NCBI RefSeq assembly: GCF_002218065.1
Contig: NZ_BDUB01000001.1
Location: 631,567-695,566 of the forward strand
DNA: 64,000 bases
Reading direction: 5' to 3'
Source: Nodularia sp. NIES-3585
Lineage (GTDB): Bacteria; Cyanobacteriota; Cyanobacteriia; Cyanobacteriales; Nostocaceae
This document shows positions 3,299 through 59,916 of this stretch, in pieces. Numbering within the stretch: the stretch's first letter is position 1; each line of letters begins with the position of its first letter. The position numbers and the translations under genes are program-made. Under the pieces are notes generated by a model. It had not been told where the DNA came from. It ran no database searches and saw only the letters and a list, made by a program, of their open reading frames with translations.

Positions 3299-4120
3299 TT
3301 AAGAATCACCTTGTTGTTGCTGTAACTGTTGTACTACTTCCTCAGATAAACCAGTGATGCGAGCGATCGCGGCAATTGTCATGCCTTCTGCTAGCAAGTT
3401 GAGGGCAATTTGCTCGGCTTTCTCCTGACTACCTTCCTGTTTACCTTCCTGTTTACCTTCTTCTCTACCTGCCTGTCTACCTTCTTCCAAACCTTCAGTT
3501 TTAATCAATTGATAAATCACTGACTCGCGCATCATATCCTTCCTTAGTAAGCGTTGAATCACATCTTGTTTCAATACTAACCCAGCTAAAACTGCTGTGG
3601 ATGCTGCCAGATTACTTTGCATTCGCCGGTCGGAAATATTATTAATTTCATCAGCTACCGCTTGTAATGTATTGGTTTGATTATTCGTATTACTTAACAC
3701 CGCAAATGGCAGTAAACCCGGCGTTCCCAAAAATACCTCTGTTGGTTGTTCCCACAAGCGAATTACCGTAAATTCATGATGTAAACCATCGATATTAAAT
3801 GTATTTTTATACACCTCTTCTGATTTTGTCTCAGTCAGATAAATTACTACTTGACGCATTCGTTTTTGGGGAAAGCGCCGATACACGCGTAGGCGATAAT
3901 CCGCCATGCGAAAGGGAATAGAAGCATCAGGCTGGGTTTGAAATTCCAGATGTAGAACCACTTCATCTGATTGCAGTAGTATCAATGCGTCAGCGCGAAT
4001 CGGTTCTAAAGATAATTCCTTGGGACTTAACTCAGTCAATTCTACGGGTGTTCCTAGTAGCCATGTAGCCAAGTCCGTAGAAAATGTTTCGGCGATGAAC
4101 TTGCAGATGTTGTCAAACAT
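3299..4120 (-). CDS. Rpn-like PD-(D/E)XK nuclease family protein, array copy 1
   Basis: 273 residues. The N-terminal ~130 residues match the recombination-promoting nuclease (Rpn)/putative transposase type with PD-(D/E)XK fold: Asp in RADALILLQ followed by the ExQ motif in VVLHLEFQTQPD, then ADYRLRVYRRFP. A helical middle is followed by a charged repeat of Glu-Gly-Lys-Gln units (about 215-235) and a C-terminal helix-turn-helix-like tail, MTIAAIARITGLSEEVVQQL. Family members are proposed DNA endonucleases that promote recombination; the role here is unknown. It is the leftmost intact copy of a tandem array with about 860-890 bp between starts. Confidence 0.85.
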   Translation of the reverse strand: MFDNICKFIAETFSTDLATWLLGTPVELTELSPKELSLEPIRADALILLQSDEVVLHLEFQTQPDASIPFRMADYRLRVYRRFPQKRMRQVVIYLTETKSEEVYKNTFNIDGLHHEFTVIRLWEQPTEVFLGTPGLLPFAVLSNTNNQTNTLQAVADEINNISDRRMQSNLAASTAVLAGLVLKQDVIQRLLRKDMMRESVIYQLIKTEGLEEGRQAGREEGKQEGKQEGSQEKAEQIALNLLAEGMTIAAIARITGLSEEVVQQLQQQQGDS

Positions 4121-4185
4121 GAAGAAATTGTATCACCTGATGGGCGATCGCCTTTGACATCATACTTGAGCAAACAATAGCTATG

Positions 4186-50056: not shown

Positions 50057-50136
50057 GAAGCAGGGGCGCAGGGTGCAGGGTGCAGGGGGGAGAAACTTAT
50101 AAATCCCAGTAGTATCCATTACCCATTACCCATTAC

Positions 50137-50850
50137 TTACCCATGACCTAGTTCTAGTAATCCAGGGGGGGGAGTAATTTCAATGCGACGGGATTCGACA
50201 TCTACTACGGGGGCGATCGCTTTGACAAATGGTATCAAAAGATGCTTCTGTGATTTAGGCGGTGATTTTTCCGACTGAACAGTTTGATGTTGCTGATGCA
50301 GCTTGACTTCCAATAAAAAATTACCAGCCGGAATGACATCTACCACCTCCCCCACAAGTTCCCCAGATTCTTGCATAAATACCAACATCCCGATCAAATC
50401 GGTGACATGATATTCATCTTCAGCTAACTGGGGGCGATCGCTTGCTGGTACCATCAACTTATAATCGCGCAAAGCCTCAGCATCATTGCGATTTTTCACC
50501 CCAGCCAAAGAAATCACACACAAATTTTTCCCTTCCACATAACGTCCCGACAATAACTCCACCGGTTGCGGTTCCTGATCCCCAGGATGCCATAACCAAC
50601 GAGTCCCCGGAATTTCAAACCGTTCGGGAAAATCCGATTCAGGATAAACCCGCAACTCCCCAGCCAAACCTTGAGGAGCGACAATTTTACCAATTTCTAA
50701 CCATTCATCGGGAGTGGGGAGTGGGGAGTGGGGAGTGGGGGAAGACTTTGGGCTAGTACCACCATCCTTGTTCAGCCTTTTCCCTTTCTTATCCATCTCC
50801 TTCTTGGCGACCTTTGCGCCTTGGCGGTTCGTTTTCATTATCTTAGGCAC
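50137..50850 (-). CDS. rimM: ribosome maturation factor RimM
   Basis: 237 residues in the longest frame. The RimM body starts near residue 47: [38 protein letters not shown], then the PRC barrel [12 protein letters not shown] and [15 protein letters not shown]. It binds S19 and assists 30S head assembly. The first ~46 residues are repeat-derived: a basic stretch ([18 protein letters not shown]) and Pro/Thr/Ser codons from a GGGGAGT array. The true start may be an internal codon. It overlaps the 3' end of the aminotransferase gene by 8 bases. Confidence 0.9.
50709..50742. repeat. GGGGAGT heptamers inside the rimM frame
   Basis: Four to five GGGGAGT units within the 5' part of the rimM reading frame; on the gene strand they encode SPLPTP-like residues. 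Confidence 0.8.
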
Positions 50851-52126
50851 TCACAACAGCACGCTGATAAACTCGTTCAGCCACCTGAGCCAAACGTTGC
50901 ATACCCGTGACAATTTCCTCATCACTACCAGTCAGACTAATGCGTAAACATTGGTGCTTGTGCAGCCATTCTTCCCGCAAACCAGGGAAAAACCCACTTC
51001 CAGGCACAACAATCACACCAACCTGCTTCAGTTCCTGGTAAAATTCCCAATCAGTCATGGGTAAATCCTGTAGCCATAACCAAGCAAAAATCGCTCCTTC
51101 ACCGCGATGGAGGAACCAAGGTAAATCCTTAGGCATTGCCGTATCTAAAGTATCTTCAAGCACAGTAAACTTTTTCTGATAGAAAGGACGAATCACTTCC
51201 TCAGCGATTTGGCCTAAAGCACCAGAATTAATCGCAATAGCGGCTATAGCTTGACCATAGCGTGAGGGATGAATACACAAATTTGTCTGAAAGCACTCCA
51301 AGGCTTGAATGATGCCTTCATCACCAATGGCAACACCAATGCGTTCTCCAGGTAATCCCACCTTTGATAAACTCATGCAGTGCAGGATATTTTCACCAAA
51401 CACCGGAGTCATTTCTGTAAAATTCAAAGCTGGGAAAGGAGGCGCATATGCCGAATCAATTAATACAGGGACATTGAAAGGTGCAGCCAAAGCCGCAATT
51501 TTTTTCACTTCGTCATCAGAAAGCACATTGCCCGTCGGGTTACAGGGACGAGAGAAGATAACGCAACCCGTGCTTTGTGTCATTGATAATTGGCTGAAAT
51601 CTGGACGATATTTAAACCTGTGAGCCGCCGCATCAATATCCAAAGTTGGCTTATAGGCAATTAAGGCATCTTGCTCTAAACAAACACCGCCGTAGCCCGT
51701 ATAGTCGGGACTCAGAGGTAAAACGATTTGTTTGAGTTGTCCTTGATTTGTATAACCACCGAAGGCATTGGCAGCGTAGAAGTAGAGGCTTTGACTGCCG
51801 GGTGTAATTAGGATATTGCGATCGCTTAAGTTTAAACCATAGCGTTTGTTAAAGTCATTGGCGATCGCCTCAATTAAAGGGGCATAACCCTGACTCGAAC
51901 CGTAACGACAAACCACCTCACCGTATTCCGAACCAGCTAATAATTCTGCCGTGCAGTCGCGCCACAACTGTTCAACCTCCGGCAAAATCAACGGGTTGCC
52001 AGCGCTCAAATTCATAAATTCTTGCCCTGCCCCAGCTTTTAACGTTTCGACAATATCCTTCATAATCGCTCTTACGCCAGTCAACTTAGACATTTGAGCG
52101 CCAATTTTCGTGAGGGCAGGGTTCAT
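50843..52126 (-). CDS. class I aminotransferase, valine-pyruvate type (AvtA-like)
   Basis: 427 residues. PLP fold-type [44 protein letters not shown] and the Schiff-base Lys in [14 protein letters not shown], then Arg in [10 protein letters not shown] near the end. The closest family by these signatures is valine-pyruvate aminotransferase (AvtA), which interconverts valine/2-oxoisovalerate and alanine/pyruvate. It is upstream of rimM with an 8-base overlap, so the two share a message. Confidence 0.88.
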
Positions 52127-52313
52127 AAGCTTTGTAACAATAAAGATAAGATCAAACTTAGCAAAATTCTAGCGGCTTGATATCACTATCGAGAATTGCC
52201 GCCTGTAACTAATGTACCAATCTCATGGGAAAAAGCAATTGGGCAATTTTATCATCCTGGACGCAAGACCCCATATAAAATGTAGTGCGATTTGGGGAAT
52301 GAGCGATCGCAAC

Positions 52314-52358
52314 TCAGTTATCAGTTATCAGTTATCAGTTATCAGTTATCAGTTATCA
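52314..52358. repeat. (TCAGTTA)6 heptamer array
   Basis: Six perfect 7-bp units plus TCA. Perfect repetition suggests recent expansion. Confidence 0.95.
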
Positions 52359-52433
52359 TTCTATAGGGGTATGCACTTAAACTATAGCGGTATGCACTTA
52401 AATGAAGTACATCATAGCCCCCTCCTCGCTTGC

Positions 52434-52589
52434 GCTATCGTGTACACACAAGTCTTATCAAGTTGCCTCATCAGGTTTTGATCCCCCCTAGCCCCCCTTG
52501 AGAAGGGGGGAAATTTTCTTAAAGTCCCCCTTTATAAGGGGGATTTAGGGGGATCAGATCACTTGTGTGTACACCGTAGCCTCGCTTGC
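52434..52589. mobile_element. MITE-like element with 14-bp ends and flanking direct repeat
   Basis: GTGTACACACAAGT (52440-52453) and ACTTGTGTGTACAC (52561-52574) are perfect inverted ends. CCTCGCTTGC occurs on both sides (52424-52433 and 52580-52589), like a target duplication. The core has CCCCCTTGAGAAGGGGG and CCCCCTTTATAAGGGGG palindromes. Confidence 0.6.
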
Positions 52590-52646
52590 ACCGGAGGGGG
52601 TTGGGGGTGGGGTTCTTATCTCTCACTCAACCGAGAACCGCTATAT

Positions 52647-52856
52647 TTATTCCCTGTCTTCATAAGCTTTAATTTTTTCATACAAACTATCAACATCCTC
52701 CTGAGCAAACAAATTTTCTTTTAGTTGTAAATAATCACCTTTGCCTAATTGACACGCAGCCCAAAATTTCATCACCTTGGATGGCTCTAAATGTGTGAGT
52801 AAAACCTCTATTACTTCTTTTAAGTTTTGCTGTTCGTTAATAACTTTAATTGTCAT
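52647..52856 (-). CDS. small conserved protein downstream of a broken PIN toxin
   Basis: 69 residues, helical and acidic (EVIEVLLTHLEPSKVMKFW, SLYEKIKAYEDRE). Its ATG overlaps the stop of the PIN-domain remnant (ATGACAATTAA), a toxin-antitoxin-like coupling. It could be the antitoxin or an accessory protein of that system; the family is not recognised. Confidence 0.6.
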   Translation of the reverse strand: MTIKVINEQQNLKEVIEVLLTHLEPSKVMKFWAACQLGKGDYLQLKENLFAQEDVDSLYEKIKAYEDRE

Positions 52857-53280
52857 CTTCTATATCCAAAATAAAATCAGTTGGGTTGACTGTTTTGAGT
52901 GTTAAACTTTGACAGCGATTGATTAATCTCTTATCACAAGTGATAAAATAATTACTCTGAGAAAGACCTAGCCCAGGCGATTACAAATCGCGGCTATACA
53001 AACATGACGCGAAGTGTCTTCCCGTAGGGAAGGCCGCCTGCGCGGACTAACATAAAATTGAGGTCTTCAACCCGCGTAGGCGGGTTTTGCCTGTGTAGAC
53101 GCGATTTCTAATCGCCTAGTGCAAGATATGTGTTACTGAAGAACTAACTAATTTTATTAATTGTGCTTCGACCATTTGTAAAATTAAGATTACAGCTTGT
53201 GTTTCTAGAAATATTTTTGGCTGTATTTGGTCATCGAAGGGGCGGTTATAAATACTTGTATCTAAATAAACCCTGGTCAT
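52846..53280 (-). pseudogene. PIN-domain toxin gene disrupted by a repeat
   Basis: The N-terminal part (53280-53116) reads MTRVYLDTSIYNRPFDDQ and continues to KLVSSSVTHILH and stop. The C-terminal part (about 52970-52846) reads SQSNYFITCDKRLINRC and ends FILDIEDDN, with the third-motif Asp of PIN nucleases. The middle ~55 residues are missing and about 140 bp of palindromic repeat sits there. It is inactive as a single protein. Confidence 0.8.
52975..53117. mobile_element. palindromic repeat inserted in the PIN gene
   Basis: Ends CAGGCGATTACAAATCGCGG (52977-52996) and GACGCGATTTCTAATCGCCT (53099-53118) are near-inverse. The interior has CCGCCTGCGCGG and CCCGCGTAGGCGGG stems. Related to the AGACGCGATT repeats at 15139, 19930 and 47438, but longer. 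Confidence 0.65.
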
Positions 53281-53369
53281 GTCAGCGGCGAGTTTGCACA
53301 GTTGTCTTGACAAAATTTACCATTCATTGCATACTATAGATAGTCGTGCTAAATATAAAAAAATATCGA

Positions 53370-53382
53370 CCGCCTTCGGCGG
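53370..53382 (-). other. hairpin after the variable protein gene
   Basis: CCGCC-TTC-GGCGG, 54 bp beyond the stop codon, with a T-run after it on the gene strand. It can serve as a terminator. It is also at the place where retroelement-diversified genes carry a cruciform that aids retrohoming. Confidence 0.6.
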
Positions 53383-53435
53383 AGGGTCAGGGAAAAGAAA
53401 AAGCGGAGAGGACTCAAGAGCAAGAGTGTAAAGAA

Positions 53436-54932
53436 TTAAGTCCTCGCGGCGGAAACAGCAACCCGAAAACCGAAGGTGTTGCTCCTAAAGTCCGGGAAGA
53501 AGCTGCCACGACACGCAGAACGGCAATACCTCGTATCGTTGTCCCAGGAACCACCGCGCAGCAGCCGCGATTGATTATTATTCTCATCCTTATTGTTATT
53601 TAGCCAAGCACCACCATCATTGGGCGCACCTTTATAATTTTCATGCCAATGGTCGTGACACCAATCATAAACATTACCGTGCATATCATACAACCCAAAG
53701 GCATTGGCTACATAGCTGCCTACGGGACTTGTCTGACCTACAGATTTGCCTTTTGGCTCATCACCATAGGTAGTTTCAGCACTGTAATTTGCTAAATCCG
53801 ATGTAATAGTTTCGCCAAAGTGGAATGGAGTTGTCGTGCCTGCTCTACAAGCGTATTCCCATTCAGCTTCACTAGGCAATCGGTAGTCTTTATTGGTGTG
53901 TATTTTTAGTCTATCACAAAACTCCACCGCTTCATACCAAGAAATTTTTTCTACTGGTAAATTGTCACCTTTAAATTTCGATGGGTCAGGCTTCAGTTCC
54001 CTATTTACTTGCGGGAGAGTTGCTACAGCCCGCCACTGTGCTTGAGTGATGGGGTATTTACCCATAAAGAATGGCGAAACAGTGACTTTATGCTGAGGTT
54101 TTTCGTCATCATCACTTTGAGCTTCACCTTCTAGTGAACCCATGAGGAATTTACCACCGCGAATAGACACCATTTCTAAAGTGACATTATTGGGTAGGCT
54201 TTCGCTGAAATATTGGGCGGTTTTAGTTTCTGTGTTGATAATTTCCCCGCGACGGTTAACTGTAGGCGTTTGATATGTAAACACCATTGGACTAGGAGGA
54301 GAAATTTCACCTTTGAGCAACCTGCCAACTTCTTCAGCAAGTTCTCTTAATGAGTCATACTGACTTAACTGGGGTTGAAACTCTGTAATCAAACGCTGTA
54401 ACCGGGCTAATTCTGCTTGTCCATTTTTCCCACCCTTAATTAATGCTTGTAGCGCCTTCTTAATTTCCTCTTCGGCTTGAGTACGCTGTTCATCTAAATA
54501 AACCATTGCAGCCCATTGTTGCGCCTGCAATTGATCTGGTTGATGGGGGTGAGTTCGCATTAAATAAGTTACATAGTCCAGCAATAATTGGGCTATAGAC
54601 TTGAGACGATTTCTGCCAAATTTCTGCTGAAATCCTGGTTCTGTAAATTTTGCTAATAAATTTGACCGGACAACCGGAGTCATGGCGTACAATTCATAAC
54701 CCACTGGACGACACAAATCCGACAACAGTAAATCTGCTTCTGCTATCCACGGGACTTCTTCGTTGAGTAAAAATTGCACTCGGATATAATTGACCAATTC
54801 GGGAGTTAAAACCAAGGGTAAAGCGCAGTGAGCAGCTAAATATTCATAGGATGGCTCAAATCGTCCCACAAAGCGGTTAATTTGCTGCTCGGCTATTTCT
54901 TGAATTAATTCATCAGATAAGGGACTATTCAT
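53436..54932 (-). CDS. FGE/sulfatase-fold protein with predicted retroelement-diversified C-terminus
   Basis: 498 residues. The N-terminal ~210 residues are helical, not recognised, likely an adaptor. The C-terminal formylglycine-generating-enzyme fold (C-type-lectin like) covers about 250-498: MVSIRGGKFLMGSLEGEAQ, YPITQAQWRAV, RLPSEAEWEYACRAGT, GLYDMHGNVYDWCHDHWHE, RLLRGGSWDND and FGFRVAV. In the last ~35 residues, positions usually Asn are D, Y, G, S, F and T, mostly with NNC codons. This is the pattern of adenine mutagenesis in a variable region. Catalytic FGE Cys are not evident, so ligand binding rather than catalysis is likely. Confidence 0.88.
   Translation of the reverse strand: MNSPLSDELIQEIAEQQINRFVGRFEPSYEYLAAHCALPLVLTPELVNYIRVQFLLNEEVPWIAEADLLLSDLCRPVGYELYAMTPVVRSNLLAKFTEPGFQQKFGRNRLKSIAQLLLDYVTYLMRTHPHQPDQLQAQQWAAMVYLDEQRTQAEEEIKKALQALIKGGKNGQAELARLQRLITEFQPQLSQYDSLRELAEEVGRLLKGEISPPSPMVFTYQTPTVNRRGEIINTETKTAQYFSESLPNNVTLEMVSIRGGKFLMGSLEGEAQSDDDEKPQHKVTVSPFFMGKYPITQAQWRAVATLPQVNRELKPDPSKFKGDNLPVEKISWYEAVEFCDRLKIHTNKDYRLPSEAEWEYACRAGTTTPFHFGETITSDLANYSAETTYGDEPKGKSVGQTSPVGSYVANAFGLYDMHGNVYDWCHDHWHENYKGAPNDGGAWLNNNKDENNNQSRLLRGGSWDNDTRYCRSACRGSFFPDFRSNTFGFRVAVSAART
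53440..53550 (-). other. predicted DGR variable region (VR)
   Basis: On the gene strand from TGG: GAC AAC GAT, then TAT, TGT, GGC AGC TTC TTC, TTT, AGC AAC ACC TTC. Each is explained by A changes in AAC, AAT, TAT or ATC codons, while intervening codons (CGT, TCT, CCG, GGT) are the expected consensus. A GC-rich stretch CCGCCGCGAGG follows, like an initiation-of-mutagenic-homing site. Confidence 0.7.
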
Positions 54933-55021
54933 AGTTCGCCAAGATTGCCAGTACCAAAACCTTCAATTTTACCATCTGATTATCTATAATATAATTGTTT
55001 ATCGCTCTAATCATTGGCAAA

Positions 55022-55276
55022 ATGACCATGACGACTGTAACAAAGACTCAGAAAATCTACGATGAGTTTATTGATTTTATGGCTCAAGGAACTAGCTCAG
55101 AAAGAATGACCAAGTTTCAATTTTCTGAGGCGACGAAAGAACAGATAGCAGATTTAATTGAACGCGCCAAAATAGGAGATTTATCTTCGTCTGAAAAAAC
55201 TGAGTTTGAGCAGTTTTTAGTGATAGAGCATCTGATCCGATTAGCAAAAGCTAAAGCTCATCAATACCTTAAGTAG
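55022..55276 (+). CDS. small conserved cyanobacterial protein
   Basis: 84 residues from ATG 55022 (ATG 55028 also possible). Helical, with KTQKIYDEFIDFMAQGTS and VIEHLIRLAKAKAHQYL. I recall similar small genes beside nucleases or toxin-antitoxin loci in cyanobacteria, but do not know the function. It is on the opposite strand within the island, and the following bases hold a palindromic repeat. Confidence 0.6.
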   Translation: MTMTTVTKTQKIYDEFIDFMAQGTSSERMTKFQFSEATKEQIADLIERAKIGDLSSSEKTEFEQFLVIEHLIRLAKAKAHQYLK

Positions 55277-55571
55277 GTAGTTGGAAAAATTTCCAGGTAT
55301 GTCATTGCGTTAGCGGAGCGTGGCGTTAGCCATACGAAGCGTAGCGGAGTGAAGCAATCGCAAGAGTTCTGAGGATTTTACATTTTGTTACACAGTTAGG
55401 TTTATTTGTGCCTACCTACTTAAATCAGTTTCTCACTAGAGAGATTAATTATGCTTGACAGTTTAATAATAGCGATCGCCTCATAGAAAGACAATTATTG
55501 ATTGATGTCAATAGATACCCTTCACCTGAAGCTTTAAAACGAATGAAATAATGATCGAGAAAATATCCTTT
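55277..55571. other. spacer with palindromic repeat and a gene fragment
   Basis: 295 bp. About 55305-55365 is a GTTAGCGGAGCGTGGCG-type dispersed repeat. 55459-55551 is an open frame without a start that reads DRLIERQLLIDVNRYPSPEA and then LKRMK and stop, which looks like the tail of a lost gene. Confidence 0.45.
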
Positions 55572-56627
55572 TCAACGAATCTCGGCGATCGCCTGATTTA
55601 AGCCATGAGGATCAAGGGGATACATTGGTAATAAATTGGCGATAAATTGGGCTGTAGTTCCGCGCCAGCGTTCTGGGGGTATGGGATTCAACCAAGCGAT
55701 TAACTTGGTATGTTGTTTAATTTGCCACAAAACTTCCGCCGTAGCTGAAAATCTTTGAGAACGGCGATCGCCTCTTGCTGCTCCCCCATCACTGACAATT
55801 AATATACTGGTATTGCCGTCGCCAGCTGCTAAAGTTGACTTCAATAGAACTTTCTCTGTTAAATAGGGATCTCGATAGATATATTCTGCCGGTACGTTGT
55901 GAAAATAACCCACCCGTACCTGCTGGATGTTACTTTCGTATTGGGCAGTTTGAACCAAATCCCGTGTAAAGTGGTGAAAAGGGGTCATAGAGCCTTCTTG
56001 ATCGATTAATAGCAGCAAATCGGCGTGATTTCGTTCTCTGCGTCCATATTTTGGTTCTAAGAAAAATCCCTGTTTGCAGACTTGAGCGATGGTTGCGGCC
56101 ACATCTAAAACATCCTCTCTACCATCCCCTACCATGCGCCGTAAATACCGCCAGCTATAAACCATATACCTGCGCGAAATGGGAGCATAAGTTTGGAAAT
56201 CCCGATCTTCTGTTTGCTGTTCTAATAAACTAATGGGGGATTTGACGGGAAGTAAGGAAAATTCCGGTGTGGGAGTGGGAAAACTGTCTACAGGCGAAAC
56301 TTGTTTTTCAGAGGATGGAGGGGAAGGATTGGAAGATGGAGTTGATTCTGAGGATGAATCTGGGTTATTTTCCCTTAATTCTTCCTCCTTTGGGGCTGCT
56401 TCAGCACTGATAGACCGAAAAATCACTTCTAACTGGTCTTGTTGTGCTAGAGAATGACACCATAGCGATTTTAAAAGTTTTTTCAGTGCATTTGCATCTT
56501 CAGTTCCCCACCCGCCATCAATAGCTTTTAGCGTGACTAAATATTCACTGACACCCAAAGCAAATCCATCGCGCCGCAAGCGGTAGAATAGGGGATCTAA
56601 CAGAGGATAGGGGTTAAAGTCACTCAT
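55572..56627 (-). CDS. vWA-domain protein (CoxE-like), partner of MoxR ATPase
   Basis: 351 residues. The N-terminal helical part has FYRLRRDGFALGVSEYL; a Ser/Pro-rich low-complexity linker lies at about 85-130. The C-terminal vWA domain has a degenerate MIDAS: LLLLIDQEGSM (DxSxS is DQEGS), GDGNTS and VSDGGAARGD. Loss of the first Ser may weaken metal binding. The ATG overlaps the MoxR stop (ATGA), so translation is coupled. MoxR-vWA pairs act as chaperone or switch modules. Confidence 0.85.
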   Translation of the reverse strand: MSDFNPYPLLDPLFYRLRRDGFALGVSEYLVTLKAIDGGWGTEDANALKKLLKSLWCHSLAQQDQLEVIFRSISAEAAPKEEELRENNPDSSSESTPSSNPSPPSSEKQVSPVDSFPTPTPEFSLLPVKSPISLLEQQTEDRDFQTYAPISRRYMVYSWRYLRRMVGDGREDVLDVAATIAQVCKQGFFLEPKYGRRERNHADLLLLIDQEGSMTPFHHFTRDLVQTAQYESNIQQVRVGYFHNVPAEYIYRDPYLTEKVLLKSTLAAGDGNTSILIVSDGGAARGDRRSQRFSATAEVLWQIKQHTKLIAWLNPIPPERWRGTTAQFIANLLPMYPLDPHGLNQAIAEIR

Positions 56628-57589
56628 GCTGAGGGATAATTGGGATTTTGCCAGTCTTGTCGTAATTTAAAGAGTAAGTCTCGATAGGGAATTGTATTTC
56701 CTTGCTGGAGTTGAGTTACAGGATAGGGTTTTGGGGTAAAATGGTCTAAAGCAGCCAGCCAATCCAGAAATTCACTTGTACCAGGGAGCTTAAACAAGCT
56801 TTTATCTTCACGTATCTTTAAAAATTTAGCGATCGCTGACTTGACTAAATCTGCTTTAGGTATGGTAGTTTTATCTACTTTCTGTTTCTGTGCATAGTGA
56901 GCATTAACAATCTTTTGCAACTCTTCTGGTTGACTAGGAAACCTGACATAGTGATATAAACAGCGTCGTAAAAAGGGAGTAGGTAAGCTACCTTTTTCTT
57001 TATTACTGGTAATAATAATAATTGGTAATTTGTCTGGATTAGCTTGGATTTCTTCTCCAGTTTCTCGAATAAAGAATTTCCAAGGCTTTTCTAATATCGA
57101 AAGTAAATCATTGGGGAAATCCACATCAGCCTTATCAATTTCATCAATTAACAAAACGGCGGGATATTCCTGAGATTGAAAAGCTTTACCCAGAGAACCT
57201 AATTCACGGTAATCTTGAGGTTCTTGAGGATTGCGAGGTTTTTTAGTTTGGGGATTAATTGATGGACTTAAATTTTGGGTTTGGACATCATGGAGGCGCA
57301 AAATTGCATCATATTCATATAATCCCTCTTGAACTTTCGTAGTTGAGCGAATATCCCAGCGATAAAAGGGTAATCCTAATTCATAAGCGATGGCGACTGC
57401 TAATCGAGTTTTACCACATCCGGCTTCTCCTTCTATTAAAAGTGGTCTTTGGAGAAATATTGCCAAATTCACAGCTTCAATTAATGCGCTATCTGCAATA
57501 TATGGTTCTAATTCTGTGGGGGAATCAGGATGAGGTTTTTCCGGTCGTGCTTTAGGGTCGCATTGGAAGGTGTATGGAGGAGGATTCAT
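56624..57589 (-). CDS. MoxR-family AAA+ ATPase
   Basis: 321 residues. Walker A EGEAGCGKTRLA (about 53-64), FYRWDIRSTTKVQEGLYEY, Walker B AVLLIDEIDKADVDFPND, sensor 1 IIIITSNKEKG and arginine finger TPFLRRCLYHYV. A hexameric remodelling ATPase. It works with the overlapping vWA gene. In conflict-type systems this pair is linked to a trypsin-like or CHAT-type effector, as is found upstream here. Confidence 0.92.
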   Translation of the reverse strand: MNPPPYTFQCDPKARPEKPHPDSPTELEPYIADSALIEAVNLAIFLQRPLLIEGEAGCGKTRLAVAIAYELGLPFYRWDIRSTTKVQEGLYEYDAILRLHDVQTQNLSPSINPQTKKPRNPQEPQDYRELGSLGKAFQSQEYPAVLLIDEIDKADVDFPNDLLSILEKPWKFFIRETGEEIQANPDKLPIIIITSNKEKGSLPTPFLRRCLYHYVRFPSQPEELQKIVNAHYAQKQKVDKTTIPKADLVKSAIAKFLKIREDKSLFKLPGTSEFLDWLAALDHFTPKPYPVTQLQQGNTIPYRDLLFKLRQDWQNPNYPSA

Positions 57590-57707: not shown

Positions 57708-58682
57708 TTATGCAATTTTATTGAATCTGCGTTCTAAAAATAGACAGGTTTTAATTGGGTCTCCTTGCGATAAGTTAAATATTGTTGTTGATTCGTTTAT
57801 ACCTTCTTGTCGTGAATATTTATAAGTTTCTTCAATCCAGTGAGTAATATCCTGGTGCTTCCATTTTTTTGGTAAAGATAATTTTAAAATTTTTTGATTA
57901 CAAAATTGAGATTGATTACAAAAATACGGTAGGCGTTTCATTTTTTGCGAGAAAGAAGAACCTGTTGTCATAAAAATCAGGATTTTAACGTTCGCATATC
58001 TTTGAGATATTTGATTATGTTTTTTAGTTAAAGGAGTCCAAAAGGTTTCAACGAACCAGGATAATAAAGAATCTTGATTTTCGCCAAGAGCGTCCCAACA
58101 ATCCAATTCAAAAAAGATAATACTTCCAGTTTGTAAACTTACTTCAAGGGTATCAATAATATTACTAGCGTAATTATCAGGATTTTCATGTTTTTTAGTA
58201 TTAGGAATAAATTGAACAATCGCATCTAATAAAGTTTCTTTATTTGTAATATTATTGTCTAATAAATTAATCTGAAAATGTTTTATATGATCAGACTCCT
58301 TAGTTAGAAAGTCATGCGTTCTGCGAATCAATAAATCACCCCTATTGGAACCGATGTTCTCAATTATAAAGAAAGCTGATACACCATCACGATTACCTAA
58401 TATTTTCTTTATCGTCTTTTCACTTTGTGAAAAGTCAATATTAGGCAGCGTTTTATCAAATATATTTCCTTTGTGATTATTAGTTAATGATGCTCCTAAA
58501 AATTCACTAAGTTGACTTTCAATTTTCTCCAATTCATCACATAAATTTTTATGCTCATTTTCTAAATCCAAATATGTTGTAGATGCTGGATTTTCAAATC
58601 TCATTCGCTTAGAGATTATATCTGCTTTTTCTTCAAAAATTTTTCTTTGCTCTTCAAGATGTTTTTTGCGATACTCGTTCAT
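57708..58682 (-). CDS. probable inactive STAND-type protein with N-terminal adaptor segment
   Basis: 324 residues. The N-terminal ~60 residues (LEEQRKIFEEKADIISKRM, YLDLENEHKN) are a coiled coil matching the C-terminal end of the neighbouring protease. The following domain has an alpha/beta NTPase look: FFIIENIGSNRGDLLIRR in place of a Walker A, SIIFFELDCWDAL as a Walker-B-like strand and KILIFMTTGSS. No GxxxxGKS is present, so it probably does not hydrolyse NTP. Assignment to the iSTAND group is inference. Confidence 0.65.
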   Translation of the reverse strand: MNEYRKKHLEEQRKIFEEKADIISKRMRFENPASTTYLDLENEHKNLCDELEKIESQLSEFLGASLTNNHKGNIFDKTLPNIDFSQSEKTIKKILGNRDGVSAFFIIENIGSNRGDLLIRRTHDFLTKESDHIKHFQINLLDNNITNKETLLDAIVQFIPNTKKHENPDNYASNIIDTLEVSLQTGSIIFFELDCWDALGENQDSLLSWFVETFWTPLTKKHNQISQRYANVKILIFMTTGSSFSQKMKRLPYFCNQSQFCNQKILKLSLPKKWKHQDITHWIEETYKYSRQEGINESTTIFNLSQGDPIKTCLFLERRFNKIA

Positions 58683-58701: not shown

Positions 58702-59568
58702 CTAAAAATCAGAAAATTCTCGTTCAATCTTTTTAAGCTCTTCAAAATAGAAAGTAATTTGTCTTTCCAAATTCAAATAATTAGCTAAATTGGACTCAAA
58801 ACTCATCTGCTTACTCACCGCTTCAATATTTTCCTCAAACTGTTGCTTCCGTTGTTCAAGAAACCTTCTCTTGGCTGGTAATAAAGCTGGATTAATTGAC
58901 TTCTCTATGGGCTTACTTCCAATAACAACTGACTCCAAATATTGCCAAGCCTTGACTAAAGTTTGAATGGGAATCATAAAAGAGACTTTTGCAGCTTCTC
59001 GGCGACTATCTGCTGCAACTACCATCCCAACTACTCCCTGTAATTGTTCATCCCAAACCGGAGAACCACTAAATCCTTTTGCAATAGCGTATCCAGTCAC
59101 CTTAGTATCTTCCAGTTGTACCCATTGTTTAGCATTTTGCTCTGATAATACCCCAGTTGCCCAAACTCCAAAAGCAACACCCTGGGGACAACCAAAAACT
59201 TTAAATGGATGCTTTGAGATATTTTCTGATACAATCAACCGAGTTGGTTGGGCTTGAGAAGGTAAATGTTCCAGCTTTAAAACAGCAATATCTTCAATTA
59301 TGAGATCCGAATTTAAGTCAGATGTAGGATGCCAATGAACAACCGTCGCCTTAATTTTTTCAGTTGAATTAGCTAAGGGAAAATCAACCTGAATTTCTCC
59401 ATCAGGGATGTTTGCTATCGAGTCAGAAATGAATAACGCCTCTCCCACGACATGAGCGCAAGTCAAAGCATATTTTTCTGCCACCAGAAAGCCAATACCG
59501 ACTACATCATCCTGATAAAATATCCGAATAATTGAATTTTTATGACTATTAAAATCAATAGCATTCAT
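58702..59568 (-). CDS. trypsin-like serine protease with C-terminal adaptor segment
   Basis: 288 residues. Protease domain about 1-210 with full triad: His39 in ALTCAHVVG, Asp93 in IEDIAVLKL and Ser167 in AKGFSGSPVW. No signal peptide, so it is cytosolic. The C-terminal ~55 residues (LEQRKQQFEENIEAVSKQM, YLNLERQITF) form a coiled coil repeated at the start of the next gene. This fits a protease that is recruited and switched on through homotypic contacts. It is followed after 20 bp by that gene. Confidence 0.9.
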   Translation of the reverse strand: MNAIDFNSHKNSIIRIFYQDDVVGIGFLVAEKYALTCAHVVGEALFISDSIANIPDGEIQVDFPLANSTEKIKATVVHWHPTSDLNSDLIIEDIAVLKLEHLPSQAQPTRLIVSENISKHPFKVFGCPQGVAFGVWATGVLSEQNAKQWVQLEDTKVTGYAIAKGFSGSPVWDEQLQGVVGMVVAADSRREAAKVSFMIPIQTLVKAWQYLESVVIGSKPIEKSINPALLPAKRRFLEQRKQQFEENIEAVSKQMSFESNLANYLNLERQITFYFEELKKIEREFSDF

Positions 59569-59574
59569 TAACTA

Positions 59575-59916
59575 TTAACCCTCACCTTTACTACTCCATT
59601 TCAAAGTAATTTCATAGCTAACTTCGCCACCAACAGACGCAAAAATTGCTCCAGCATCCGCCGTTAACTTCAGCCCAAATTTAACCTCTACCTCATCGAT
59701 GGGCTGGTTGAGGTCGCGTAATTTAGAGATAATAGTAGAAGCAACGGGTTTAATGTTCTCTAAGGCTTCTTCAAATGTCTGCTGCACCTTGAGGACTTGT
59801 CTTCCTGATGGTAGCGAAGCTCGCTCAATTCCACCACGACCTTCTGGTTCATCCACTTCCACCAGAAATTTAGTTCCATCTGCTAGGGAAAACTCAGCTA
59901 TTTTTTTTTCTTTCAT
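59575..59916 (-). CDS. Trypco1 (CU044_2847 family)-like protein
   Basis: 113 residues. FLVEVDEPEGRGG, TFEEALENIKPVASTIISKL, EVEVKFGLKLTADAGAIFAS and YEITLKW match the small trypsin-co-occurring domain. It is the first gene of the minus-strand unit, 6 bp before the protease. The domain is known mostly as a neighbour or fusion of trypsin-like enzymes and may regulate or target them. Confidence 0.8.
   Translation of the reverse strand: MKEKKIAEFSLADGTKFLVEVDEPEGRGGIERASLPSGRQVLKVQQTFEEALENIKPVASTIISKLRDLNQPIDEVEVKFGLKLTADAGAIFASVGGEVSYEITLKWSSKGEG

What the first reader, a model, noticed from the sequence alone, without database searches (positions are those of the whole stretch)
53436..53560. 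Predicted retroelement-diversified variable region at the C-terminus of an FGE-fold protein
Seen: codons after GGTTCCTGG read GAC AAC GAT ... TAT ... TGT ... GGC AGC TTC TTC ... TTT ... AGC AAC ACC TTC. Where relatives have Asn, Tyr or Ile, every change is at an adenine of AAC, AAT, TAT or ATC, including paired AA to GG and AA to TT, while third bases and intervening codons are unchanged. A GC-rich stretch and a CCGCC-TTC-GGCGG hairpin follow. Known: diversity-generating retroelements (DGRs) mutate adenines of a template and install them in C-type-lectin-fold proteins. Inferred: this is a remote DGR target. The reverse transcriptase and template are not in the window, so it would be a trans target.
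Basis: partly seen in the sequence, partly recalled or inferred. Interest (0 to 1): 0.9.

Follow-up and report, generated by a model that had tools for sequence, protein, structure and literature searches.

The report
Orphaned hypervariable receptor gene in cyanobacterium
The tail end of this cyanobacterial sensor gene really was rewritten by a retroelement that randomises adenines, but the rewriting machinery is missing from this genome while a sister species still has it, so the gene looks like a frozen product of hypermutation rather than one still being mutated.

Summary
The 3' end of the 498-aa FGE-fold gene (53436-54932, -) is a DGR variable region (VR). The orthologous operon in a same-genus genome (G001) carries avd, a DGR reverse transcriptase (RT) and a template (TR) just after this gene. 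Against that TR the window VR has 19 differences in 125 nt, 16 at TR adenines (P 1.5e-9); third positions in the 24-codon core are unchanged. A second gene of the genome has a sister VR: 22 differences between the two, 20 at those adenines. In the window the avd-RT-TR segment is gone: homology ends in the avd leader (53291) and resumes at 52311 by the aminotransferase gene, with about 980 bp of other DNA between. No intact DGR RT was found in the genome, only a 132-aa stub with the genome's one Avd, and two TR-like sequences that do not fit this VR. So: an orphaned former cis target in a MoxR/VWA-type operon, target-site signals kept, variation probably frozen. Known kind; the clean before/after pair is the useful part.

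The parts
53436..54932 (-). variable protein gene, 498 aa: N-terminal part without Pfam match, C-terminal FGE-sulfatase domain (aa 253-492)
   Evidence: PDB sequence relatives PvdO 5hha and the Treponema variable protein 2y3c
53443..53567 (-). DGR variable region (VR), the 125 nt that align to the sister genome's template
   Evidence: 16 of 19 differences at TR adenines
53472..53543 (-). diversified core, 24 codons
   Evidence: codon-position changes 11/7/0 vs ortholog, 13/9/0 vs paralog
53443..53471 (-). nearly constant 3' end of the VR (IMH-like; the name is by analogy with BPP-1)
   Evidence: 2 differences from the G001 TR here; G001's VR and TR agree up to GCCGCGAG, then part
53383..53435 (-). 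pyrimidine-rich tract after the stop codon, a recurrent mark of cyanobacterial VRs and not of TRs
53370..53382 (-). GC-rich hairpin CCGCC-GAA-GGCGG, target-site hairpin/cruciform candidate
   Evidence: the 32-nt hairpin segment occurs in the genome only here and at the L002 VR (up to 3 mismatches)
53306..53369 (-). conserved AT-rich stretch ending GGTAAATTTTGTCAAG; with small changes it stands 32-35 nt before avd in four relatives
   Evidence: avd start read by eye in three of the four
53291..53305 (-). deletion scar: last 15 nt resembling the avd leader (13 of 15 vs G005)
52312..53290 (.). other DNA in place of avd-RT-TR: repeats and short ORFs (53116-53313 -, 52647-52856 -), no Pfam match for the two pieces tried
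50843..52126 (-). aminotransferase-like gene (named by eye) that flanks the site of the lost cassette in both species
   Evidence: synteny with L066
55572..56627 (-). VWA (CoxE-like) protein of the operon
56624..57589 (-). AAA ATPase, MoxR-like (the name MoxR is recalled)
57708..58682 (-). iSTAND protein
58702..59568 (-). trypsin-like peptidase with effector-associated domain EAD9
59575..59916 (-). Trypco1 protein

Best explanation
This is an orphaned DGR variable region. In an ancestor, a DGR directly downstream of the FGE-fold gene (avd, RT, TR) copied its template with random bases at adenines and wrote the copy into the gene's 3' end, using the constant end of the VR and the hairpin behind the stop codon as target signals. 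Later a segment holding avd, RT and TR (about 1.8 kb in the sister species) was lost and other DNA now stands in its place. The gene, its last written variant and its target site remain. With no DGR RT found in the genome the variant is now inherited as ordinary DNA. The protein is probably a ligand-sensing part of a MoxR/VWA-type conflict operon. Shown by sequence: the adenine-specific pattern, the intact sister locus, the missing cassette, no RT found. Inferred: the mechanism of writing, deletion as the event, present inactivity, and the sensor role.
For: Sister locus in G001 in the same synteny with Avd (NCBIfam DivGenRetAVD 139.6 bits, cut-off 80), RT (RVT_1 78.2 bits; motifs IGNLTSQ and YVDD read by eye) and TR; G001's own VR has 12 differences from its TR, 12 at adenines. 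Window VR: 16 of 19 at TR adenines; second G000 VR (L002): 15 of 16; the two compared directly: 20 of 22, P 8e-14. Window vs G001 (NG86): core dN 0.41, dS 0; upstream dN 0.045, dS 0.153. The 3' module through GTCAAG lies 32-35 nt before avd in G001, G008, G025 and G005; the window keeps 15 nt more, 13 of 15 like G005, so the window locus most likely once had the leader. No intact DGR RT found in the genome, listed at 100% completeness in 4 contigs: the RVT_1 search gave 5 hits (three group II types, one group II fragment, one retron-like); the G001 RT matched a 132-aa stub and two of the group II proteins.
Against: Three of 19 differences are not at adenines of the sister TR; the window's own TR is lost, so whether they are TR differences or later point mutations is open. 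No strain of the same species could be compared, so frozen versus recently active is inferred. One intact outgroup from the same genus only (G001); of the other same-genus genomes searched, G002 has only a distant homologue of the N-terminal part (36%) and G003 and G004 none at E 1e-5. The boundary on the TR side is judged from one species.
Confidence: 0.9

Rival explanations
1. Live remote (trans) target: an RT and a TR elsewhere in the genome still diversify this VR.
For: Remote VRs are common in cyanobacteria (PMC7517822, section 6 read), and G001 has remote VRs with 12 of 12 and 15 of 16 differences at TR adenines (the second with 5 gap columns). TR-like sequences without RT persist in this genome at C1:1970498-1970610 and, degenerate, at C1:1427867-1427968.
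Against: No intact DGR RT found in the genome. Neither TR-like sequence fits this VR: at 1.97 Mb 21 of 35 differences are at non-adenines; at 1.43 Mb 7 of 12 over only 51 alignable bases.
Confidence: 0.06
2. The window locus never had a cis cassette; G001 gained one, and this VR was diversified in trans by a DGR since lost.
For: The window, the L002 locus and G001 all diverge at or near the same GTCAAG, as an insertion in G001 would also give.
Against: The same module stands before avd in three other genera, and the window keeps 15 nt beyond GTCAAG that match G005's avd leader at 13 of 15 (binomial tail 9e-7 for one fixed alignment).
Confidence: 0.08
3. Ordinary positive selection or recombination among FGE paralogues, no DGR.
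For: FGE paralogues abound in the genome, and lectin-like ligand sites can evolve fast.
Against: Adenine specificity against an actual TR, zero third-position changes in the core while 88 of 166 FGE-domain changes versus the paralogue are at third positions, and the TR next to avd and RT in the sister.
Confidence: 0.01

Closest known systems
Cyanobacterial DGRs with C-type-lectin/FGE variable proteins (Vallota-Eastman et al. 2020, PMC7517822)
   Same: C-terminal VR in an FGE/CLec domain, DGR cassettes, dispersed paralogues. They report one PCC 7120 gene (all3226) with remnant TR-VR homology but no RT nearby and suggest removal of diversification components after selection (section 6 read).
   Different: Here a syntenic intact locus in a sister species and a 15-nt avd-leader scar document the loss, and no intact DGR RT was found in the whole genome.
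VMAP-ternary (MoxR/vWA) conflict systems with DGR-diversified FGS domains (Kaur et al. 2020, PMC7159879)
   Same: AAA and VWA genes, trypsin/EAD parts and an FGE protein with hypervariable C-terminus; that paper gives a DGR link for about 80% of cyanobacterial and gammaproteobacterial VMAP-ternary systems (passages).
   Different: FGE is a separate gene here, whereas the paper says it is mostly fused to vWA; the DGR is absent. A VMAP protein was not looked for by its own profile.
Incomplete DGR loci of Thiohalocapsa PB-PSB1 (Dore et al. 2024, PMC10907252)
   Same: VRs left at loci with disrupted RT/TR; some best explained by trans activity, one (DGR 1) without observed variation (section 8 read).
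   Different: PB-PSB1 has intact components elsewhere in the genome or in some cells; in this genome none was found.
BPP-1 DGR target site (Guo et al. 2011, PMC3240598)
   Same: GC-rich hairpin downstream of the VR (passages).
   Different: 5-bp stem with 3-nt GAA loop here, against 7-10 bp and 4-nt GRNA; about 60 bp past the VR behind a pyrimidine tract, against 4-34 bp.

Membership tests
DGR variable region (VR) | near-repeat of a TR with differences at TR adenines | tested here: met
   16 of 19 vs sister-species TR; 20 of 22 between two VRs of this genome
DGR variable region (VR) | cognate TR in the same genome | tested here: not met
   TR search of own genome: two TR-like sequences (1.97 and 1.43 Mb), neither fits
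DGR variable region (VR) | C-type-lectin-type fold with VR at the C-terminus | tested here: met
   FGE-sulfatase 190.2 bits; 2y3c and 5hha by sequence; no structure predicted
DGR variable region (VR) | hairpin downstream of VR | tested here: met
   53370-53382; shorter stem and loop than the phage consensus
complete DGR cassette | DGR reverse transcriptase | tested here: not met
   none at the locus and no intact one found in the genome
complete DGR cassette | Avd accessory protein | tested here: not met
   none at the locus; one Avd in the genome, beside the RT stub at 4.26 Mb
complete DGR cassette | ongoing mutagenic retrohoming | not testable with these tools
   needs populations or an assay
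VMAP-ternary conflict system | MoxR-type ATPase and VWA gene pair | tested here: met
   AAA/AAA_5 and VWA_CoxE side by side; that the AAA protein is of MoxR type is recalled
VMAP-ternary conflict system | VMAP component | not tested
   iSTAND and trypsin-EAD9 genes are there; no VMAP profile was run

The most novel reading that the evidence does not exclude
DGR targets in these cyanobacteria outlive their DGRs: after the RT is lost, hypervariable conflict-system sensors are kept as fixed-specificity receptors with their target sites preserved (hairpin plus a pyrimidine tract), so that a newly arriving DGR RT/TR could restart diversification. On this reading, loss and re-acquisition of the RT would be a switch between exploring and fixing receptor specificities.
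Probability: 0.25. Interest if true: 0.7.

Novelty: new member of a known kind. Interest (0 to 1): 0.43.

Why it matters
DGRs are usually found by their RT, so VRs that outlived it are easily missed. A syntenic pair, intact in one species and cassette-less in its sister, shows what is left when hypermutation stops: the VR stays open, its target site persists, and non-adenine changes may begin to accumulate. It makes the published guess that diversification is ended by removing the machinery testable by comparing species and isolates.

Tried and rejected
Rejected: a matching template in the own genome. An ungapped scan allowing any base at template adenines was run on 5 loci only (L011, L013-L016); whole-genome searches with the window VR and with the G001 TR covered the rest. 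The two TR-like sequences left (1.97 Mb; degenerate 1.43 Mb) do not fit. Rejected: the 382-aa RT at C1:1171909 as a DGR RT; NCBIfam puts it nearest retron-type RTs (389 bits, below that model's cut-off of 600). The other RVT_1 hits are group II types. Rejected: the short ORFs that replaced the cassette as a named toxin-antitoxin pair; I thought one PIN-like by eye, Pfam gives nothing for the two pieces tried. Rfam showed no match over the DGR RNA region in three loci. Plasmid records hold related RTs (34 at E 1e-20, best 72% in Fischerella; not each checked to be DGR), which suggests such RTs can travel but not that one is here.

Errors of mine: an offset error made one search's last line and the first lines report 94 differences between the two VRs; one search corrects this to 22. 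In one search local alignments clip some candidates.

No structure was predicted: the question did not turn on it.

Full report
What is there. The window is part of G000:C1 (631567-695566), a 5.77-Mb genome in 4 contigs listed as 100% complete; the closest named matches to the gene are cyanobacterial. The finding lies at the 3' end of a 498-aa gene, 53436-54932 on the - strand, with an FGE-sulfatase domain at residues 253-492. Upstream on the same strand lie VWA, AAA (MoxR-like), iSTAND, trypsin-EAD9 and Trypco1 genes, an operon of the type described as MoxR/vWA ternary conflict systems (PMC7159879, passages seen).

The template exists, in a sister species. Searching 60 genomes (the own one and 59 relatives) with the VR DNA and with an RT fragment led to G001, same genus. 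Its orthologous locus (L066) has the same gene order with one weakly similar position (its iSTAND-place gene did not align), but between the FGE gene and the aminotransferase gene it also has Avd (115 aa), an RT (352 aa) and a TR. Avd matches NCBIfam DivGenRetAVD above its cut-off; the RT matches RVT_1. G001's own VR differs from this TR at 12 of 125 positions, all 12 adenines; two further G001 VRs elsewhere differ at 12 of 12 and 15 of 16, the latter with 5 gap columns.

The window VR against that TR: 19 differences, 16 at adenines (30 of the 125 TR positions are A), P 1.5e-9. A second FGE gene of the same genome (C1:2590415-2590567, L002): 16 differences, 15 at adenines. Compared with each other the two G000 VRs differ at 22 positions, 20 at TR adenines, P 8e-14. 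Independent of any template: in the 24-codon core the window and L002 differ at 13 first, 9 second and 0 third positions, while in 200 FGE codons upstream the counts are 42, 36 and 88. Against the G001 ortholog the core has 11, 7, 0, and the 462 upstream codons 28, 13, 46; core dN 0.41 and dS 0, upstream (452 codons) dN 0.045 and dS 0.153. As calibration, TR-VR pairs in loci that keep their RT have 0 to 2 non-adenine differences (16 such pairs in 17 printed, one of them G001's; only loci where both were found and at least 60 bases aligned). The window has 3 against a different species' TR. Two of them (C>A, G>T) are private to the window VR; the third is shared with L002, so it was probably already in their common lineage. 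The two private ones may be point mutations after the loss or differences of the lost TR; I cannot tell.

The cassette was lost. Window-to-L066 homology runs 50118-52311 and then 53305-55431. L066 positions 4848 to about 6627, which hold TR, RT and avd, have no counterpart next to the gene (the TR's only match is the VR itself). In G001, G008, G025 and G005 the stretch ending GTAAATTTTGTCAAG (GTAGATTTTGTCAAG in G025 and G005) stands 32-35 nt before avd, whose start I read by eye in the last three. The window keeps it (53306-53321) and 15 nt more (53291-53305), 13 of 15 identical to G005's leader. So the avd leader was most likely once there. The replacing 980 bp carry repeats, one of them (53035-53130) also found elsewhere in L066, and short ORFs; the two pieces tried have no Pfam match.

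No machinery was found. RVT_1 in the genome: 5 hits, none DGR-type: three group II-type RTs (two above the NCBIfam cut-off, one at 287.7 of 300), one group II fragment, one retron-like. The G001 RT finds in this genome one 132-aa stub and two of the group II proteins. The stub (C1:4261236-4261619) sits after a TIR/SEFIR-FGE gene and the genome's one Avd, and runs directly into sequence like the conserved stretch downstream of TRs: a second cassette that lost most of its RT and its TR. A third locus at 1.97 Mb has an FGE gene and a TR (15 of 17 differences at adenines) and no RT in the 16 kb held around it. A fourth place, 1.43 Mb, has a decayed TR-like sequence with its downstream stretch. Neither TR-like sequence fits the window VR. 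G002, G003 and G004 of the same genus showed no DGR-type RT either (weak hits of 27-29% identity only). G002's best VR differs from the G001 TR at 28 positions, only 13 at adenines (P 2.6e-3), and its hairpin is imperfect, which may be a later stage of decay; its lineage may also have had another TR.

Target site. Behind the stop codon lie a pyrimidine tract and a hairpin; the 32-nt hairpin segment is identical at L002 and occurs nowhere else in the genome at up to 3 mismatches. Over the loci then held, after dropping duplicate and short flanks, 116 VR-type 3' flanks: 76 have a 45-nt stretch of at least 80% pyrimidine; TR-type flanks 0 of 22; other ORFs 12 of 653. A hairpin of the set kind: 42, 2 and 80. 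Tract plus hairpin: 39, 0 and 2. Of 17 VRs paired with a TR in the same locus, 14 have the tract. VR-type and TR-type were told apart by a regular expression and asparagine counts, flanks of related genes are not independent, and some VR-type genes are plain FGE homologues. The hairpin may also be a terminator, as T-runs often follow it. A paper search for DGR with pyrimidine gave 10 papers; by title and abstract none is about DGR target sites, so I have not seen this tract described. In 31 of the 60 genomes, those with a fetched locus, 11 of 17 without and 12 of 14 with a DGR RT of this family (at least 65% identity and long frame) have a VR-type gene with the tract. One of the 17, G010, has an RT fragment, two gave no scorable flank, and their weaker RT hits were not classified. 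Orphan targets may thus be common, but this was tested by the tract alone and not by TR comparison.

How it most likely works. Shown: adenine-specific pattern, intact sister locus, absent cassette, no RT found. Established for DGRs (recalled, and PMC3240598 passages): adenine-mutagenic cDNA copied from TR replaces VR, with a downstream hairpin needed. Inferred: the gene was last written before the loss and has been static since; it senses a ligand for the conflict operon.

Against what is known. Vallota-Eastman et al. 2020 (section 6 read) already note a PCC 7120 gene with TR-VR homology and no RT nearby and propose removal of the components; Dore et al. 2024 (section 8 read) describe incomplete loci. 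The searches run for orphan or lost DGR targets listed no paper that by title or abstract is on this point beyond Dore et al. So the case is a new, unusually clean member of a known kind.

Noticed in passing
53383-53435 and 3' flanks of VR genes in many loci (L087, L100, L134, L022 and others): A pyrimidine tract of roughly 50 nt, often with a short GC hairpin behind it, marks cyanobacterial VRs and not TRs: tract in 76 of 116 versus 0 of 22, other ORFs 12 of 653. Possibly an undescribed part of the target site.
   Followed up: partly
G000:C1:1970498-1970610 (L016, L003); G001 L183 and L184: FGE gene plus TR pairs with no RT in the 10-16 kb held around them; in G001 L183, 14 of 14 TR-VR differences are at adenines, so an RT elsewhere may serve them.
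   Followed up: partly
L013:10100-10977: Second broken DGR of the window's genome: Avd open, RT cut to 132 aa and running into the stretch that normally follows a TR.
   Followed up: partly
L179 around 3868-4130 (G000:C1:1427867 on): A decayed TR-like sequence with the conserved downstream stretch and no open FGE frame around it.
   Followed up: partly
L066, L067, L016 and other TR loci, downstream of the TR: A conserved noncoding stretch (GGTGACGATATCC...TTGGGTAGCTTGGTAGGTG... in L066) follows most TRs seen, across genera, but not the TR of L183; no Rfam match there in the three loci tried.
   Followed up: no
L183:5433-5801: A four-helix-bundle protein (TIGR02436; that Avd belongs to this broader fold group is recalled) lies next to the RT-less TR in G001.
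   Followed up: no
52320-52357: Short tandem TATCAGT-type repeats lie right at the junction where the cassette is missing and also occur in G001.
   Followed up: no
L016:3439-3625: IsrR antisense RNA, Rfam RF01419, 168.9 bits.
   Followed up: no
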